Positions 4,270 through 27,333 of a stretch of DNA of 30,123 nucleotides are shown piece after piece. The DNA is from a virus: positions 1-30,123 of IMG/VR virus record IMGVR_UViG_3300036826_000247; one strand, 5' to 3'. The translations under genes were made by a program, and so were the position numbers. The notes beneath the pieces were generated by a model. That model worked only from the letters and a program-made list of their open reading frames with translations, did no database searches and was not told the origin of the DNA. Positions within the stretch are counted from its first letter, which is position 1, and each line of letters starts with the position of its first letter.

Positions 4270-5049
4270 ATGTGGCGCCGCCGCAAGCCGCTGCCGATCC
4301 CGCCGGCGCAGTTGCGCGACCTGATCGGCGGCAGCCCCCCAGAGGACTTCGACAACCCCGGCGGCGGGCTCGTCTACCCCTACCTGCCCGAGACCGCCTA
4401 CGAGTCGGTGCTGGACTTCGGGTGCGGCTGCGGGCGTGTCGCCCGTCAGCTCATCCAGCAGGACCCGCGACCCCAGCGTTACCTGGGGGTTGACCTGCAC
4501 GCCGGCATGATCGACTGGTGCAAGCGCGAGCTCGCGCCGCACGCGACCGGGTTCGGGTTTGAGCACCAGGACATCCACAGCCCCGGGCTCAACCCGGATG
4601 GCGCTCACCGGGTGCTGCCGTTCCCTGCCGGTGACGGCGAGTTCTCGCTGGTCAACGCGATCAGCGTGTTCACGCATCTCGCCCAGGACCAAGCCGAGCA
4701 TTACCTGCGCGAAGCCGCCCGGGTGCTGCGCCCGGACGGCTACCTGCACGCCACCTGGTTTCTGTTCGACAAGACGAGCTTCCCGATGATGCAGCCGTTC
4801 CAGAACGCGCTGTTCATCAACGAAGCCGACCCGTCCAACGCGGTGATCTTCGACCGGGCCTGGGTGCTCGATGCCGCGCGCAGCGCCGGACTCATGCTCA
4901 CGCATGCCGTGGCGCCGGAGATCCGCGGGTTTCACTGGCATCTCGTCATGCGTCCCGTGATCGCGGGCGACGTCGAGGTTGAACTCCCGGCTGATGACGC
5001 GCCAGTCGGATCGCATCCTCCTCCCCTCATCCCGTCTAGCCGACCCTGA
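4270..5049 (+). CDS. Class I SAM-dependent methyltransferase (moron)
   Basis: 259 residues. Motif I is 'VLDFGCGCGR' (residues 47-56), followed by the acidic residue after strand 2 in 'GVDLHAGM' (Asp75), 'FPAGDGEFSLVNAISVFTHL' as motif IV-like, and 'AARVLRPDGYLHATWFLFD' as the strand-5 region. This is a small-molecule or glycan type Methyltransf_11/25 fold rather than a DNA methylase, since no DPPY-like motif is seen. The substrate is unknown. It is the only plus-strand gene between 1.6 and 29 kb. It lies 35 bases from the divergent endolysin and overlaps the tail-fibre gene by 14 bases tail to tail, which fits a later insertion that could be expressed in the lysogen. Fibre, sugar or surface methylation are possibilities. 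Confidence 0.8.
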   Translation: MWRRRKPLPIPPAQLRDLIGGSPPEDFDNPGGGLVYPYLPETAYESVLDFGCGCGRVARQLIQQDPRPQRYLGVDLHAGMIDWCKRELAPHATGFGFEHQDIHSPGLNPDGAHRVLPFPAGDGEFSLVNAISVFTHLAQDQAEHYLREAARVLRPDGYLHATWFLFDKTSFPMMQPFQNALFINEADPSNAVIFDRAWVLDAARSAGLMLTHAVAPEIRGFHWHLVMRPVIAGDVEVELPADDAPVGSHPPPLIPSSRP

Positions 5050-20832: not shown

Positions 20833-22437
20833 TCAAAAGGTCACGAACCGTCCGCCGCGGCGGCGGTTGAGCGCGCCGGCGCGGATGGCCAGGCCGCGCG
20901 CGTCCCAGGACAGCGTGGCGCAGACGGCCAGGTCGACGCGCCGCGGCGAGTTCTGCCCGTCCTTGCCGATGAGCCACAGCAGTGTCCCGTCATCCTCGTC
21001 GCGCATCTGCGTCGGGCGCTTGACGGCGTTCCCGATGTGGCGCTCGAGCTGGTCGGCGAGCGCGCCGCCGTAGGACATGACGCCTGGCCGCATGTCCGTC
21101 GCGAACTGCTTGAGCGCGTAGGCCATCCGGCGGCGGCTGTTGGTCCAGAACAGGACGACGCGATCCTCTCCATGACGACCGGCCCAGCGGTTGATGTCCG
21201 CCAGCCAGTGCGGCGGGTCGAAGTGTCCGCGCCAGATGTCCCACGTCGCGAACGCATGTTCGACCGTTGCGTCGACCTCGTCGACGGGGACGGTCCATGG
21301 CTCTTCGGGGGGGAGGTCGCGTGGCCGCTCCCAGTAGCCGAGCACGATCTGGTGGCCGGATTCGACATCGGTGAGCACCAGGCCGGTGCCGTCGCGCGTC
21401 AGCGCGCCGTCGAAGCCGAGGGTGGCAAGTCGGCCCGGCTCTATGACGAGGTCGTTGTTGCGTAGCAGCGTGTAGGCCTCCAAGTCGAAGGCCTTGGCGG
21501 CCCCGGCGACGATGCGGTTGCCGAAGAATCGCTCGGCCTGGCCTGGGTCCTTCTTGGCGTCCAGCCGGTTGCACTCGGACATGATGCGGTCGATGTCGAC
21601 CCATGGCGCGCCGCGGTAGGCGTGGTTGAGGATCCGGCGGCGCTCGCGCTTGTTCGCCCACGATCCGGGCAGCGGCTCGGGGTAGTTGACGTAGACGTCC
21701 TGCACGAGCTCGCCGCGCACGCCCTCGACATCGAGCTGCACCTGAGATTGCTGCGTCGGGTCCCAGGCGTTCGCCGATGCGGACCAGCGGCCGCCGATCC
21801 CGGCGACGTTGCGGCGCTGGTTGTCGGCGAGCGCGTGGCCGTTGTTGCGTGCCAGCCATGACTCCAGCTGGTCTTGGCAGACATAGGTGACGCGCTGGCC
21901 CAGCCGGGACACCGCGCTGGAGGTCACGCGTTCGATCAGGCCTCCATCGGGGAGGTAGATCTGCTGCTGGCCGGTGTCCTGGATCCAGTCGGCGATCGCG
22001 CCGAGCTCGATCATCGGCAACAGCGCCTGCCACACGTTCTTGGCCTGGTCTTCCGAGATGGCGGTGACCTGGATGTGCGGCGTCGGCCAGGGCATCCCGA
22101 CGGGCTCGCCCTGTGCGTTCCAGCCGGCGAACAGGACCGGGCCGGCGCCCTGTGCGCACACTCGCGCGGCGTCGAATGGCGACTTGCCCCATTTCTGCGA
22201 GCGGACGAGGACACTGCCGACATAGACGAACGGTGCGGACGGGCGGTCGAGGTCGACGGTCGCATCGGGATGCAACCGGTACTCCCAGAGGAGATGCTCG
22301 AGCTGCTCGTCGGAGAGCACGAACCGCGTGCCGCGGACATGACGGTCAGGGACCGCGCAGCGATCCTCGATCCAGTCGGCGATGACGTAGCCGAGCGTGG
22401 GGAACTCACCCGGGACCTCGGGGCCTCGCCACGGCAT
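20833..22437 (-). CDS. Terminase large subunit
   Basis: 534 residues. A deviant Walker A is at about residues 79-87 ('RSQKWGKSPF'). 'RLGQRVTYVCQDQLESW' is the Walker B region, with an unusual polar residue before the acidic pair. The nuclease half starts at about residue 345 with 'LGFDGALTRDGTGLV' (first catalytic Asp), and a later acidic 'RVDLAVCATLSWDARG' supplies another. This is the actinophage type in which the N-terminal motifs are divergent. It pumps and cuts DNA. Start at ATG 22437, joined to the small subunit as TGATG. Confidence 0.9.
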   Translation of the reverse strand: MPWRGPEVPGEFPTLGYVIADWIEDRCAVPDRHVRGTRFVLSDEQLEHLLWEYRLHPDATVDLDRPSAPFVYVGSVLVRSQKWGKSPFDAARVCAQGAGPVLFAGWNAQGEPVGMPWPTPHIQVTAISEDQAKNVWQALLPMIELGAIADWIQDTGQQQIYLPDGGLIERVTSSAVSRLGQRVTYVCQDQLESWLARNNGHALADNQRRNVAGIGGRWSASANAWDPTQQSQVQLDVEGVRGELVQDVYVNYPEPLPGSWANKRERRRILNHAYRGAPWVDIDRIMSECNRLDAKKDPGQAERFFGNRIVAGAAKAFDLEAYTLLRNNDLVIEPGRLATLGFDGALTRDGTGLVLTDVESGHQIVLGYWERPRDLPPEEPWTVPVDEVDATVEHAFATWDIWRGHFDPPHWLADINRWAGRHGEDRVVLFWTNSRRRMAYALKQFATDMRPGVMSYGGALADQLERHIGNAVKRPTQMRDEDDGTLLWLIGKDGQNSPRRVDLAVCATLSWDARGLAIRAGALNRRRGGRFVTF

Positions 22438-22889
22438 CAGCCGGATGGGTCGATCGCCCGCAGACGCTGCTTTGTCGAGTGGCGGTCCCCCGCGCGGTGG
22501 TCATCGAGCTCGACGAGCTCGGCCTCCATCAGCCGCCACCGACGGTCCTGGCGGCCCTTCGGCGACAGCCCGAGGTTGTCGCGCAGCTGGCGCACCTCGG
22601 CGGCGATGCTCGCGCTCGGCTGGCGCGCCCAGTGCTCGTAGACGTCAGCCAGATGCAGCACCAGGTCGCGGTCCGCGGCGCTCCAGCGCGTGGACACCGG
22701 ATCCGACCACCAGGCGCGCCACGCGCGCGTGGTACGCGGCGACCAGCGTCCCTGGCCACGCCCGCGCGCCGGCAGGCGGGGGACGCGGGGCCGTTTCGGC
22801 GCCGGGATCTCGATCCAGTCGCCTCGTTGAGGCGCGTGATGGTTGCGACGCTGGCTGGGTGCCTTTGGTGGACGTCCACGCCCTGCCAC
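22437..22889 (-). CDS. Terminase small subunit-like protein
   Basis: 150 residues, GTG start. The basic N-terminus 'GRGRPPKAPSQRRNH' (AT-hook-like) leads into 'WSPRTTRAWRAWWSDPVSTRWSAADRDLVLHLADVYEHWAR' and 'EVRQLRDNLGLSPKGRQDRRW', a pattern common in actinophage small terminases ('..W...W..SP.a..w...D...l..la.l'). It recognises the packaging site and regulates the large subunit next to it. Confidence 0.8.
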   Translation of the reverse strand: MAGRGRPPKAPSQRRNHHAPQRGDWIEIPAPKRPRVPRLPARGRGQGRWSPRTTRAWRAWWSDPVSTRWSAADRDLVLHLADVYEHWARQPSASIAAEVRQLRDNLGLSPKGRQDRRWRLMEAELVELDDHRAGDRHSTKQRLRAIDPSG

Positions 22890-25012: not shown

Positions 25013-26149
25013 TCACGGTACGAACAATCCTTGCGACCCGAAAGCGACCTCGTCTTCGTACGTCAAGCCTCGCGGCGTGCGGCCGGTCGGGGTGAGCCGG
25101 TCGTAGTGGATGGTTGCCCCGGCATCTCGTGCAGCGAGATCCTTGATCGCGTCCCGATACTCCGGCTCGACCCAGGTGCCGTCGGGGTAGTCGTCGTTGA
25201 GCAGCGTCTCGAACGTCATCCGCTGGCTGCCGTACTTCGTGATCAGATGGGACTGCAGCGACGGATACGGTGCTGTTTCGTCGACCTCGAGCACGAGCTG
25301 GTCGCGCGGACGTACCGTGACGGGCCAGAACGTCATGTCCGACGACGTCTCGACCATCGCTTCCTTCATCTCGCGCATGCCCCGAGCGTTGTCTGTGAGG
25401 TGCACGAGGTAGTAGAGCGTCTGGCGACGCTCGTCCTCGTAGACCTGGAAGGGCGTGGCCCAGCGCGCGATTCCGCGATCACGGATCTCATGGCCGTAGC
25501 GCCGGACCAGGCAGCGGTCGGCGTCGGGCGAGCCGAGACAGTCTCTCCAGGCCGGGCCGCCGAACAGCTCGGTCAGGGGCGCCTCGACATTCTCCATGCC
25601 CAGGAACCGGCGCTGATCGCGGACCATGAACGTAACAAGCACTTCCATGCGAGGGATGCCCATCAGACGCGCGATGGTGGCCAGTGGGACCCCACGGAAG
25701 CCGAAGGGGTCTGCGGTGAAGAAGATCGGCGGAGCCACAATGCCAGGCATCGCCGCACGGTCAGCGACGCCGTTCGCGACAACGTCGAACGTGTCGTTGC
25801 GTGCCCTGATCGTGACGCGCGGGTGGCGCAACTCGGCCAGCACGGTTTCCAGATGTCGGTAGTTGGCTGGGTGCGCCTCGACGCAGACGATCGAGACGCT
25901 CTGGGCCCGCCCGGCCTCGACGGCCTCGACGGCCCGCTTGAAGATGATGACCGGCGAGCCGTCCTCGCCGTCGACGTATCGGCCGCGCCCGGCGAAGCCG
26001 TCGTAGATCACTAGCTTGTCGTGGTACCGGCCGAGGATCGGCAGCCACGCTCCGAGGTATCGCCGCAGGACCACGTGCTTTGCGGCGGCGTGCTCGGTGT
26101 AGCGCCATTTCTCCTCGGCGTCGTCGGGGATGTCACGCGACCGCTGCAT
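25013..26149 (-). CDS. tcmP: Three-Cys-motif partner protein TcmP
   Basis: 378 residues from the ATG at 26149, which has GAGGGG just upstream; it overlaps the three-Cys gene by 17 bases. The beginning 'AEEKWRYTEHAAAKHVVLRRYLGAWLPIL' and the motifs 'IYDGFAGRGRY' (Asp50-Gly-Phe-Ala-Gly), 'VCVEAHP' (Glu91), 'FTADPFGFRGVPL' (Asp147-Pro-Phe-Gly) and 'YYLVHLTDNARGMREMKEAM' (about 246-265) are those of the TcmP family. The first three resemble motifs I, II and IV of Rossmann-fold methyltransferases. A winged-helix-like C-terminus follows. The biochemical role is not known. It occurs next to its namesake partner, as the family name implies, so the two probably act together. Confidence 0.85.
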   Translation of the reverse strand: MQRSRDIPDDAEEKWRYTEHAAAKHVVLRRYLGAWLPILGRYHDKLVIYDGFAGRGRYVDGEDGSPVIIFKRAVEAVEAGRAQSVSIVCVEAHPANYRHLETVLAELRHPRVTIRARNDTFDVVANGVADRAAMPGIVAPPIFFTADPFGFRGVPLATIARLMGIPRMEVLVTFMVRDQRRFLGMENVEAPLTELFGGPAWRDCLGSPDADRCLVRRYGHEIRDRGIARWATPFQVYEDERRQTLYYLVHLTDNARGMREMKEAMVETSSDMTFWPVTVRPRDQLVLEVDETAPYPSLQSHLITKYGSQRMTFETLLNDDYPDGTWVEPEYRDAIKDLAARDAGATIHYDRLTPTGRTPRGLTYEDEVAFGSQGLFVP

Positions 26150-26897
26150 CGACCCCTCGCGCACGCGCGCGCGGCATCTGCGACCACTCTTGTCCCTCCA
26201 GCAGGCGTCCACCCGATGTCGGCTGTCGGCCGCCCCACTGCTTGAAGAAGAACGCAACGTCCTCCGCCACACACTGATCTCGCAGGGCGGTCAGCCACGC
26301 TTCGCTGACGGGACGGTGCGCCGAGCCCGACTCGCCACCAGCAATCAGCCAGTCGATCCCGTCGAGCTCCAATCCCTCGAGCGGCCCGAGAAGTGGCTCT
26401 GCCGAAATGAAGCGGACAGCCGCAGGCACGCTGCGCAAACTGTCGGCGCGGTGCACGAAGCGCCTGTTCTCGATGCTGACACCCATCCATACGTTGTCCG
26501 GCCAGGGCAAGTCCCTCGCGAGCTCCGTCAGCCGGTCGTCGCGCTTGGTGAGGATCTGGAACGTGTGGCGGGGCGCCTGCACCATGACCTCGAAGACCTG
26601 TGCGATGTAGTCGAAAGGGATCTCCTCGTGGAATAGGTCGCTCATCGAGTTCACGAACACGGTCCGAGGCTTCCGCCACTGCAGCGGCGCCATGAGCGTC
26701 TGGGGATGTAGCGTGACGGCGAACCCCGGGCCCGACGACTTGCGGACTCCGTCGTTCTGGTACTTGGGCTGGCCGAAGCGCTTGAGTCGTGCGGCCATGT
26801 CCAGCGCGTAGCAGTGCGCGCAGCCGGGGGAGACGCGGTCACAGCCGGTCGTCGGATTCCAGACGTGTGTCGCCCACTCAATCGAGGTCTCCGCCAT
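26133..26897 (-). CDS. Three-Cys-motif protein, DUF5131/phage Gp37-Gp68 family
   Basis: 254 residues from the ATG at 26897, where the conserved 'SIEWATHVWNPTTGC' begins; an upstream extension is low-complexity. Cys19, Cys26 and Cys29 ('TTGCDRVSPGCAHCYA') form the three-Cys motif, a likely iron-sulphur site as in radical-SAM-like enzymes, although the spacing differs from CxxxCxxC. Other family blocks are 'VNSMSDLFHE' (82-91), 'LTKR' (116-119), 'WMGVSIEN' (137-144), 'FISAEPLLGP' (163-172), 'WLIAGGESG' (183-191) and 'FFFKQWGG' (216-223). Function is unestablished. It is translationally coupled to TcmP. The pair looks less GC-rich than the structural genes, suggesting separate acquisition. Confidence 0.87.
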   Translation of the reverse strand: MAETSIEWATHVWNPTTGCDRVSPGCAHCYALDMAARLKRFGQPKYQNDGVRKSSGPGFAVTLHPQTLMAPLQWRKPRTVFVNSMSDLFHEEIPFDYIAQVFEVMVQAPRHTFQILTKRDDRLTELARDLPWPDNVWMGVSIENRRFVHRADSLRSVPAAVRFISAEPLLGPLEGLELDGIDWLIAGGESGSAHRPVSEAWLTALRDQCVAEDVAFFFKQWGGRQPTSGGRLLEGQEWSQMPRARARGVDAAVA

Positions 26898-26964
26898 CAC
26901 ACCAGTCTCACGGAGCCGGGCTCTGTCGCGAAACGTCGCAAGGCGCTTGTCACATCCCGTCGAG

Positions 26965-26974
26965 GATGCGCATC
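26965..26974. promoter_or_regulatory. 10-bp palindrome upstream of the three-Cys gene
   Basis: GATGCGCATC is perfectly self-complementary and lies 68 bases before the start at 26897, in the 115-base gap that would hold the promoter of the two-gene cassette. Confidence 0.3.
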
Positions 26975-27012
26975 GCGAAGCGCGGCAGCCTCCTGGCGGT
27001 CGGCGCCGGCGG

Positions 27013-27333
27013 TCACGGAAGGCGAGCCTGGTTGTCGCTCTTAGCGGCGTCGGGTTCGATGCCGGTTCCGTTGCACCTCTTGCACGTCGGCGCGGTCGGC
27101 CAGCCTGTCCCCGACCAGCCCTGCCCGCCGCACTCTGTGCATGGCGTTGGCTTGGCGTTGCCTTCTTGCTCACTCAGGGCTGCGTCGATCATGTCCAGGC
27201 ACGCGCCGCCATCACCCTGCTCGCGAGGAACGCGGACGTTGTAGTCCCGCGCTGCGCTGACGACCACCATCCACTCGCGGCGCTTGAGCGTAACCGTGAT
27301 CGGCTCGTTCAGGTGCGCTTCGCGGTCATCCAC
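27013..27333 (-). CDS. Small protein with DnaJ-type zinc knuckle
   Basis: 106 residues from the GTG at 27333, with GAGGG upstream. Residues about 7-55 are an alpha/beta part ('EPITVTLKRREWMVVVSAARDYNV'). Residues about 70-93 hold 'CTECGGQGWSG' and 'CKRCNGTG', two CxxCxGxG-like knuckles as in the DnaJ cysteine-rich domain, likely binding one zinc. It overlaps the preceding zinc-ribbon gene by 8 bases. It is the last gene of the small-gene operon before the three-Cys cassette. Function unknown. Confidence 0.65.
   Translation of the reverse strand: MDDREAHLNEPITVTLKRREWMVVVSAARDYNVRVPREQGDGGACLDMIDAALSEQEGNAKPTPCTECGGQGWSGTGWPTAPTCKRCNGTGIEPDAAKSDNQARLP

What the first reader, a model, noticed from the sequence alone, without database searches (positions are those of the whole stretch)
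25013..26897. Phage-borne three-Cys-motif protein and TcmP pair: a two-gene system of unknown function
The two genes overlap by 17 bases and carry all visible family blocks, so both look intact. The first has Cys19-x6-Cys26-x2-Cys29, a likely Fe-S site. The second has Rossmann methyltransferase-like motifs (DGFAG, acidic residue after strand 2, DPFG). The pair sits between a lone recombinase and a small-gene operon, has its own upstream gap, and looks less GC-rich than the structural genes. Working hypothesis: a nucleic-acid or nucleotide modification system (radical-type chemistry plus methyl transfer or cofactor binding), used for phage counter-defence or for excluding other phages.
Basis: partly seen in the sequence, partly recalled or inferred. 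Interest (0 to 1): 0.75.

Follow-up and report, generated by a model that had tools for sequence, protein, structure and literature searches.

The report
Phage-borne radical-SAM plus methyltransferase gene pair
This phage carries two adjoining genes that almost always travel together on mobile DNA; one looks like a radical enzyme related to a DNA-repair lyase and the other like an RNA/DNA base methyltransferase, so they probably modify nucleic acid together, most likely in the conflict between phages and bacteria, but what they do has not been tested.

Summary
Window 26133-26897(-) is DUF5131 (PF07505) and 25013-26149(-) is TcmP (TIGR04474); they overlap by 17 bases. The pair is not new as an entity: both genes are named families, and PADLOC lists it as the untested phage-defence candidate PDC-M30. 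New here is the anatomy. (1) Linkage is nearly obligate: DUF5131 lies beside TcmP in 80/80 genome loci and 17/18 virus loci found through TcmP alone, in four gene orders. (2) A Thermoleophilia relative encodes both as one 632-residue protein. (3) The DUF5131 model is a radical-SAM-type barrel, closest to spore photoproduct lyase (Z 13.7); its three Cys are invariant (48/48) but spaced CX6CX2C. (4) TcmP is a Rossmann methyltransferase closest to RlmJ (Z 17.2); the residues aligned with RlmJ's catalytic Lys18 and Asp164 are invariant (58/58), but motif IV is D[P/Q]xG, not DPPY. (5) Where TcmP lacks DUF5131, its neighbour is a spore-lyase-like radical SAM protein. (6) TcmP diverges much faster than DUF5131. 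Best reading: a two-SAM-enzyme nucleic-acid modification complex carried by mobile elements, probably for phage exclusion. Chemistry, substrate and defence activity are inferred.

The parts
26133..26897 (-). Gene 1: DUF5131 (PF07505) protein, 254 aa, radical-SAM-like barrel related to spore photoproduct lyase
   Evidence: PF07505 E=1e-95; PADLOC PDC-M30B 5e-100 and PDC-M41B 3e-105; radical SAM mobile pair A 2e-18, below its cut-off; model pLDDT 91.6, spore photoproduct lyase Z 13.7, rmsd 2.9, 195 aligned
26811..26843 (-). Cys19-x6-Cys26-x2-Cys29, predicted ligands of a [4Fe-4S] cluster
   Evidence: three Cys invariant in 48/48 DUF5131 sequences; aligns with the Cys motif of TcmP-linked radical SAM proteins
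25013..26149 (-). Gene 2: TcmP (TIGR04474), 378 aa, RlmJ-like Rossmann methyltransferase domain with C-terminal wHTH-like region
   Evidence: TIGR04474 E=1.4e-45; PADLOC PDC-M30A 1e-29; model pLDDT 87.9; RlmJ Z 17.2 and Foldseek 2e-7
26133..26149 (-). 17-base overlap of the two genes
   Evidence: 11-base overlap in the closest relative L025 and a fused gene in L026
26078..26080 (-). TcmP Lys24, aligned with catalytic Lys18 of RlmJ
   Evidence: 58/58 invariant; hhalign with RlmJ family; Lys18 needed in RlmJ (PMC3814359)
25976..26002 (-). TcmP motif I, DGFAGRGRY (D50-Y58), predicted SAM loop
   Evidence: D50 and G54 58/58; same motif DTHAGxGxY in RlmJ
25700..25711 (-). TcmP motif IV, DPFG (D147-G150), in the place of DPPY
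   Evidence: D147 and G150 58/58, second position P or Q; aligned with catalytic Asp164 of RlmJ
25133..25303 (-). C-terminal wHTH-like region of TcmP (aa 283-339)
   Evidence: PF22560 GMT-wHTH: E=0.097 here, but found in 8/12 relatives, best 1.9e-7
26898..27012 (-). 115-bp gap upstream of the pair, possible own leader
   Evidence: gene calls; no sigma-70-like promoter found in the region

Best explanation
The pair encodes one two-subunit (in one relative, one-polypeptide) nucleic-acid modification enzyme in which both subunits use SAM. TcmP, an RlmJ-like amino-methyltransferase with a C-terminal winged-helix region, is the recognition and base-handling subunit: it binds the target and either methylates an exocyclic amine or holds the base (inferred from fold and invariant Lys24/Asp147). 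DUF5131, a radical-SAM-like barrel of the spore-photoproduct-lyase type with a CX6CX2C cluster site, then does radical chemistry on that base or on the added methyl group (inferred). Mobile elements carry the cassette mainly to act against rival phages, as a stand-alone modification-based exclusion system without a dedicated nuclease (inferred). Shown by computation: families, folds, invariant residues, near-obligate linkage, fusion, partner exchange. Inferred: cluster and SAM use, substrate, order of reactions, purpose.
For: Linkage: DUF5131 beside TcmP in 80/80 genome and 17/18 virus loci found through TcmP alone, in four gene orders; in 149 genomes of the L025 host's phylum TcmP is in 24, DUF5131 in 20, both in 15 and always adjacent there (Fisher p 1e-10). 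Fusion of both domains in one frame in L026. Partner exchange: seven TcmP genomes of that sample without DUF5131 have an adjacent spore-lyase/PA0069/Rv2578c-like radical SAM gene, and haloarchaeal L017 a CX3CX2C one; partner type changed at least twice on the TcmP tree. DUF5131 matches these partners at 96% probability, E 2e-9, across the Cys motif, and they match the spore-lyase family at 90%, E 1e-6. Folds. TcmP keeps RlmJ's catalytic Lys and Asp; the TcmP model itself picks up RlmJ below cut-off. TcmP diverges faster: DUF5131 pairs at 50-60% identity have TcmP at a median 19%, as for a target-recognition subunit; some loci have two full TcmP copies for one DUF5131. Conflict context: PADLOC PDC-M30, TcmP directly behind the immunity repressor in Gordonia phages, CBASS next door in L021, R-M, Wadjet, AbiE and type IV genes among near neighbours; PDC-M30 in 32 of 100 P. 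aeruginosa strains, 68.8% of them phage-resistant (PMC10855318).
Against: No activity, cluster, substrate or phage phenotype was tested. Cys spacing is not the canonical CX3CX2C. Motif IV is D[PQ]xG, so the amine-methylation pocket of RlmJ is altered. DUF5131 also occurs without TcmP in many phages (156 phage records against 13 with TcmP; no TcmP in the fetched stretches of L161, L162, L164). The two predicted proteins have a slight net negative charge (-7, -2). The neighbour list has no control for enrichment. In this window the pair lies among early phage genes, so lysogen expression is not shown here.
Confidence: 0.5

Rival explanations
1. Self-protection: the pair modifies the element's own DNA so that host restriction or other defences do not cut it (anti-restriction by base modification).
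For: Sits in phages and plasmids with no dedicated nuclease partner; no third family recurs in more than 2 of 82 neighbour proteins. In this window it is co-directional with early and structural genes. Stand-alone DUF5131 genes of TChen and Zirinka lie in replication modules a few genes from a DNA methyltransferase. An ArdC-like anti-restriction gene lies near L078.
Against: In Gordonia phages TcmP follows the repressor, which suggests expression in the lysogen rather than during DNA replication. Many pairs lie on chromosomal contigs.
Confidence: 0.2
2. DNA repair: a spore-photoproduct-lyase-like direct reversal enzyme with a methyltransferase-fold damage-recognition subunit.
For: Spore photoproduct lyase is the best structural match of DUF5131 by a margin of 2.4 in Z; TcmP's alternative partners match the spore-lyase family.
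Against: The position that I believe (from memory) matches the lyase's H-donor Cys140 is Ser84 in 47/48 DUF5131; fast divergence of TcmP and patchy spread on mobile elements do not fit a housekeeping repair role; DUF5131 does not match PF20903 or TIGR04070.
Confidence: 0.12
3. RNA modification: the pair modifies tRNA or rRNA, for example to escape tRNA-cutting defences or ribosome-directed agents.
For: TcmP's best folds are RlmJ (23S rRNA) and Trm1 (tRNA), and RlmN is among the DUF5131 matches.
Against: A winged-helix region is more usual on DNA (general knowledge); RlmJ's own active site resembles DNA m6A enzymes (PMC3814359).
Confidence: 0.12
4. Small-molecule defence: DUF5131 makes a modified nucleotide, as viperin does, and TcmP methylates or senses it.
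For: Viperin-like enzymes are among the next structural matches (Z 11.3).
Against: Spore photoproduct lyase scores clearly higher; DUF5131 has no viperin family match; TcmP's relatives act on polymers.
Confidence: 0.04

Closest known systems
PADLOC candidate PDC-M30 (TcmP + DUF5131), also PDC-M41
   Same: Both proteins match the A and B models of PDC-M30 (1e-29 and 5e-100) and are adjacent. The first-reader pair is this candidate.
   Different: The A match is weak and in two pieces; the phage copy belongs to a small Thermoleophilia clade. PDC-M30 has no published mechanism that I could find.
Spore photoproduct lyase (radical SAM DNA-repair enzyme)
   Same: Best fold match of DUF5131 (Z 13.7, 195 aligned, rmsd 2.9); linked through TcmP's other partners by profile comparison.
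   Different: CX6CX2C instead of CX3CX2C, 254 aa instead of about 340, no spore-lyase family match, here beside a methyltransferase.
RlmJ, 23S rRNA m6A2030 methyltransferase
   Same: Best fold match of TcmP (Z 17.2); shared KH, D..AG.G.Y, GSP and catalytic Lys/Asp positions.
   Different: Motif IV D[PQ]xG instead of DPPY; extra C-terminal wHTH-like region; near-obligate radical SAM partner; fast-evolving and mobile.
Trm1, tRNA m2,2G26 methyltransferase
   Same: Second fold match of TcmP (Z 14.6); DPFG-type motif IV as I recall it from memory.
   Different: Different C-terminal domain and no partner.
Radical SAM mobile pair A/B, PA0069 and Rv2578c families
   Same: Sequence relatives of DUF5131 (pair A, 2e-18) and of TcmP's alternative partners.
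   Different: All matches are below the curated cut-offs.

Membership tests
DUF5131 / PF07505 | profile score above curated cut-off | tested here: met
   320 bits against 28.9, full profile 1-243
TcmP / TIGR04474 | profile score above curated cut-off | tested here: met
   156 bits against 53
PADLOC PDC-M30 two-gene candidate | A (TcmP) and B (DUF5131) components adjacent | tested here: met
   A 1.1e-29, B 5.3e-100, overlapping genes; PADLOC's own coverage rules were not run and the best A stretch is short
PADLOC PDC-M30 two-gene candidate | anti-phage activity | not testable with these tools
   no experiment; only a correlation in P. aeruginosa strains (PMC10855318)
Radical SAM superfamily | partial TIM barrel with three cluster Cys in the loop after the first strands | tested here: met
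   model pLDDT 91.6 with radical SAM enzymes as the leading matches; Cys19/26/29 invariant 48/48
Radical SAM superfamily | canonical CX3CX2C spacing | tested here: not met
   CX6CX2C in the window protein; Cys invariant in 48/48. Other spacings are known in the superfamily (general knowledge), so I call it radical-SAM-like
Radical SAM superfamily | [4Fe-4S] cluster and reductive SAM cleavage | not testable with these tools
   needs anaerobic biochemistry
Spore photoproduct lyase | match to PF20903 / TIGR04070 | tested here: not met
   no match at E<=1; direct hhalign with the SPL family is weak, 9%. The works-like claim rests on fold and the intermediate families
RlmJ | motif IV DPP(Y/F) and PF04378 match | tested here: not met
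   DPFG here, D[PQ]xG in relatives; no PF04378 match
RlmJ | catalytic Lys18 and Asp164 | tested here: met
   aligned K24 and D147 are 58/58; roles from PMC3814359
Restriction-modification system | linked restriction endonuclease | tested here: not met
   no nuclease recurs beside the pair in the 24-locus neighbour set; the HNH gene of the window is separated from the pair by three genes and lies at the terminase

The most novel reading that the evidence does not exclude
A class of mobile-element immune or exclusion systems in which a fast-evolving, RlmJ-related methyltransferase subunit picks the nucleic-acid target and an exchangeable spore-lyase-like radical SAM subunit hypermodifies or damages it. 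The radical subunit can be DUF5131, a PA0069/Rv2578c-like protein or a haloarchaeal radical SAM protein. It would be a modification-based defence that needs no nuclease.
Probability: 0.3. Interest if true: 0.8.

Novelty: new member of a known kind. Interest (0 to 1): 0.5.

Why it matters
DUF5131 and TcmP are widespread (bacteria, haloarchaea, phages, plasmids) yet functionally blank; PADLOC lists the pair as a defence candidate with no mechanism. The fold assignments, the natural fusion, the partner exchange and the named catalytic residues turn it into a directly testable enzyme: which residues to substitute, which fused protein to purify, which laboratory phages to use. If it modifies nucleic acid, it would join radical chemistry and methyl transfer in one phage-conflict system.

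Tried and rejected
Toxin-antitoxin reading: rejected as unlikely, both proteins look like full enzymes with conserved active-site residues. Restriction-modification: no recurring nuclease beside the pair. Finding solved relatives by sequence: none for DUF5131, only chance-level matches for TcmP. TcmP-alone scan of virus contigs found nothing; a 4-sequence alignment was needed. A fusion-plus-separate-subunits alignment for a complex model failed because the TcmP rows were placed on the wrong half, so the two structure jobs went to the single proteins and no interface was modelled. Direct profile comparison of DUF5131 with the spore-lyase family was weak (9%); the link goes through TcmP's other partners. 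Literature: no paper on the function of either family was found in the held library. What 'GMT' means in PF22560 could not be found. No sigma-70-like promoter near the pair. A controlled test for defence-island enrichment was not done: the family tool returns family counts, not neighbour counts.

Full report
WHAT IS THERE. On the minus strand, gene 1 (26133-26897, 254 aa) is followed by gene 2 (25013-26149, 378 aa) with a 17-base overlap. Gene 1 is DUF5131/PF07505 (1e-95), gene 2 is three-Cys-motif partner protein TcmP/TIGR04474 (1.4e-45). The window is a 30,123-base IMG/VR virus record with terminase, portal, major head, tape-measure and endolysin genes and a tyrosine integrase; the pair lies between small early genes and a 128-aa gene followed by the integrase, with a 115-bp upstream gap and a GC of 66%.

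ALREADY CATALOGUED. PADLOC-DB lists both genes as components of phage-defence candidate PDC-M30 (A 1e-29, B 5e-100). A survey found PDC-M30 in 32 of 100 Pseudomonas aeruginosa strains, 68.8% of them phage-resistant; the authors call these candidates unvalidated and found by 'guilt by embedding' (PMC10855318). In the held library I found no paper on the function of either family.

NEAR-OBLIGATE PAIR. A scan of genomes and virus contigs anchored on TcmP alone gave 80 genome loci, all with DUF5131 close by, and 18 virus loci, 17 with it; the one exception (L107) begins 72 bases before TcmP, so its upstream side is not held. The gene order varies: DUF5131 first (most), TcmP first, convergent, divergent. 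The order can change but the pair stays together. The scan favours members with the DGFAG motif and is rich in Alphaproteobacteria. In an independent sample of 149 genomes from the phylum of the L025 host, TcmP is in 24, DUF5131 in 20, both in 15 (Fisher p 1e-10), and in all 15 the two are adjacent. The closest relatives are in Solirubrobacteraceae (L025: DUF5131 76%, TcmP 62% identity, 11-base overlap) and Thermoleophilia (L026), and the three form a well-supported clade. L026 encodes both domains in one 632-residue open frame: a natural fusion, which points to a physical complex.

GENE 1. The AlphaFold model (pLDDT 91.6) matches spore photoproduct lyase best (Foldseek 7.6e-4; Z 13.7, 195 residues, rmsd 2.9), ahead of other radical SAM enzymes (SuiB and viperin-like 11.3, RlmN 10.9). 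The Cys triad is invariant in 48/48, with CX6CX2C spacing rather than CX3CX2C. Sequence support comes through intermediates: TIGR04471 'radical SAM mobile pair A' (1.8e-18, below cut-off), and the proteins found beside TcmP where DUF5131 is missing.

PARTNER EXCHANGE. Seven TcmP genomes of the phylum sample without DUF5131 (two further ones have only weak TcmP fragments) have next to TcmP a protein with a GCxHGCxxPCYA motif (CX3CX3C) that matches PA0069, Rv2578c, mobile pair B and in two cases spore photoproduct lyase models. A haloarchaeal plasmid has TcmP beside a CX3CX2C radical SAM gene. Profile comparison links DUF5131 to these partners (96%, E 2e-9, across the Cys motif) and the partners to the spore-lyase family (90%, E 1.4e-6). 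Starred branches of the TcmP tree force at least two changes of partner type (several long branches make placements uncertain). So TcmP appears to need a radical-SAM-type partner, and the kind of partner is exchangeable.

GENE 2. The model (pLDDT 87.9) matches RlmJ best (Foldseek 2e-7, Z 17.2), then Trm1 (Z 14.6). The TcmP profile finds RlmJ genes below cut-off (3e-5 in one genome), and hhalign aligns the families over KH, D..AG.G.Y, GSP and motif IV (46%, E 2e-4). In RlmJ, Lys18 and Asp164 are needed for catalysis (PMC3814359); the aligned Lys24 and Asp147 are invariant in 58/58 TcmP. Motif IV is D[P/Q]xG instead of DPPY, so the base pocket differs. A C-terminal winged-helix-like region is recognised in 8/12 members, weakly here (E 0.097).

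EVOLUTION. For locus pairs whose DUF5131 proteins are 50-60% identical, TcmP is a median 19% identical; TcmP is the more diverged in 92% of 4,095 pairs. At least four loci (L027, L032, L038, L046) carry two TcmP genes for one DUF5131 (one copy in L032 is split). Both fit TcmP as an exchangeable target-recognition subunit (inference).

CONTEXT. In Gordonia phages Easley and Bosnia TcmP starts within 4 bases of the end of the immunity repressor gene on the same strand, with DUF5131 convergent, next to the integrase region. Other copies lie beside CBASS (L021), ImmA/IrrE genes (L019), and restriction, Wadjet, AbiE and type IV genes. No third family recurs. DUF5131 also occurs alone in phages (156 records against 13 with TcmP), in two cases in replication modules a few genes from a DNA methyltransferase; one apparent solo case, Synechococcus phage Ssp-JY39, has an unannotated convergent TcmP.

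INTERPRETATION. The most economical model is a two-subunit, two-SAM nucleic-acid modification enzyme: TcmP recognises the target and handles or methylates the base, the spore-lyase-like partner does radical chemistry on it. Shown by computation: families, folds, invariant residues, linkage, fusion, partner exchange, rate asymmetry. Inferred: cluster and SAM use, substrate, reaction order, anti-phage purpose. Rivals are self-protection of the element's DNA, DNA repair, RNA modification, and a viperin-like nucleotide product.

VERDICT. A real, intact member of an already catalogued but functionally blank pair; new member of a known kind, with mechanistic leads that make it testable.

Noticed in passing
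window 4270-5049 (+): The only long plus-strand gene among the structural genes is a class I SAM methyltransferase (phrog_4752, tRNA methyltransferase, 2e-7), possibly a second independent modification gene.
   Followed up: no
window 27013-27333 (-): Small protein with DnaJ-like zinc-finger repeats (CTECGGQGWSGTG, CKRCNGTG) directly upstream of the pair.
   Followed up: no
window 22437-22889 (-): Matches phrog_226 'minor tail protein' although it overlaps the large terminase gene by one base and sits where a small terminase subunit is expected.
   Followed up: no
L027, L032, L038, L046: One DUF5131 gene flanked by two TcmP genes, a possible three-gene form of the system.
   Followed up: partly
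L151-L157: TcmP paired with a CX3CX3C spore-lyase-like radical SAM protein instead of DUF5131, with TcmP shorter in some.
   Followed up: partly
L017:2350-6140: Haloarchaeal plasmid with TcmP and two CX3CX2C radical SAM genes, a ThiF-family gene downstream.
   Followed up: partly
L163:5702-6619 (-): Synechococcus phage Ssp-JY39 gene annotated hypothetical is a TcmP (3.8e-25) overlapping its DUF5131 convergently by 46 bases.
   Followed up: yes
L026:6161-6994 (-): A second TcmP-like match lies divergently beside the DUF5131-TcmP fusion gene.
   Followed up: no
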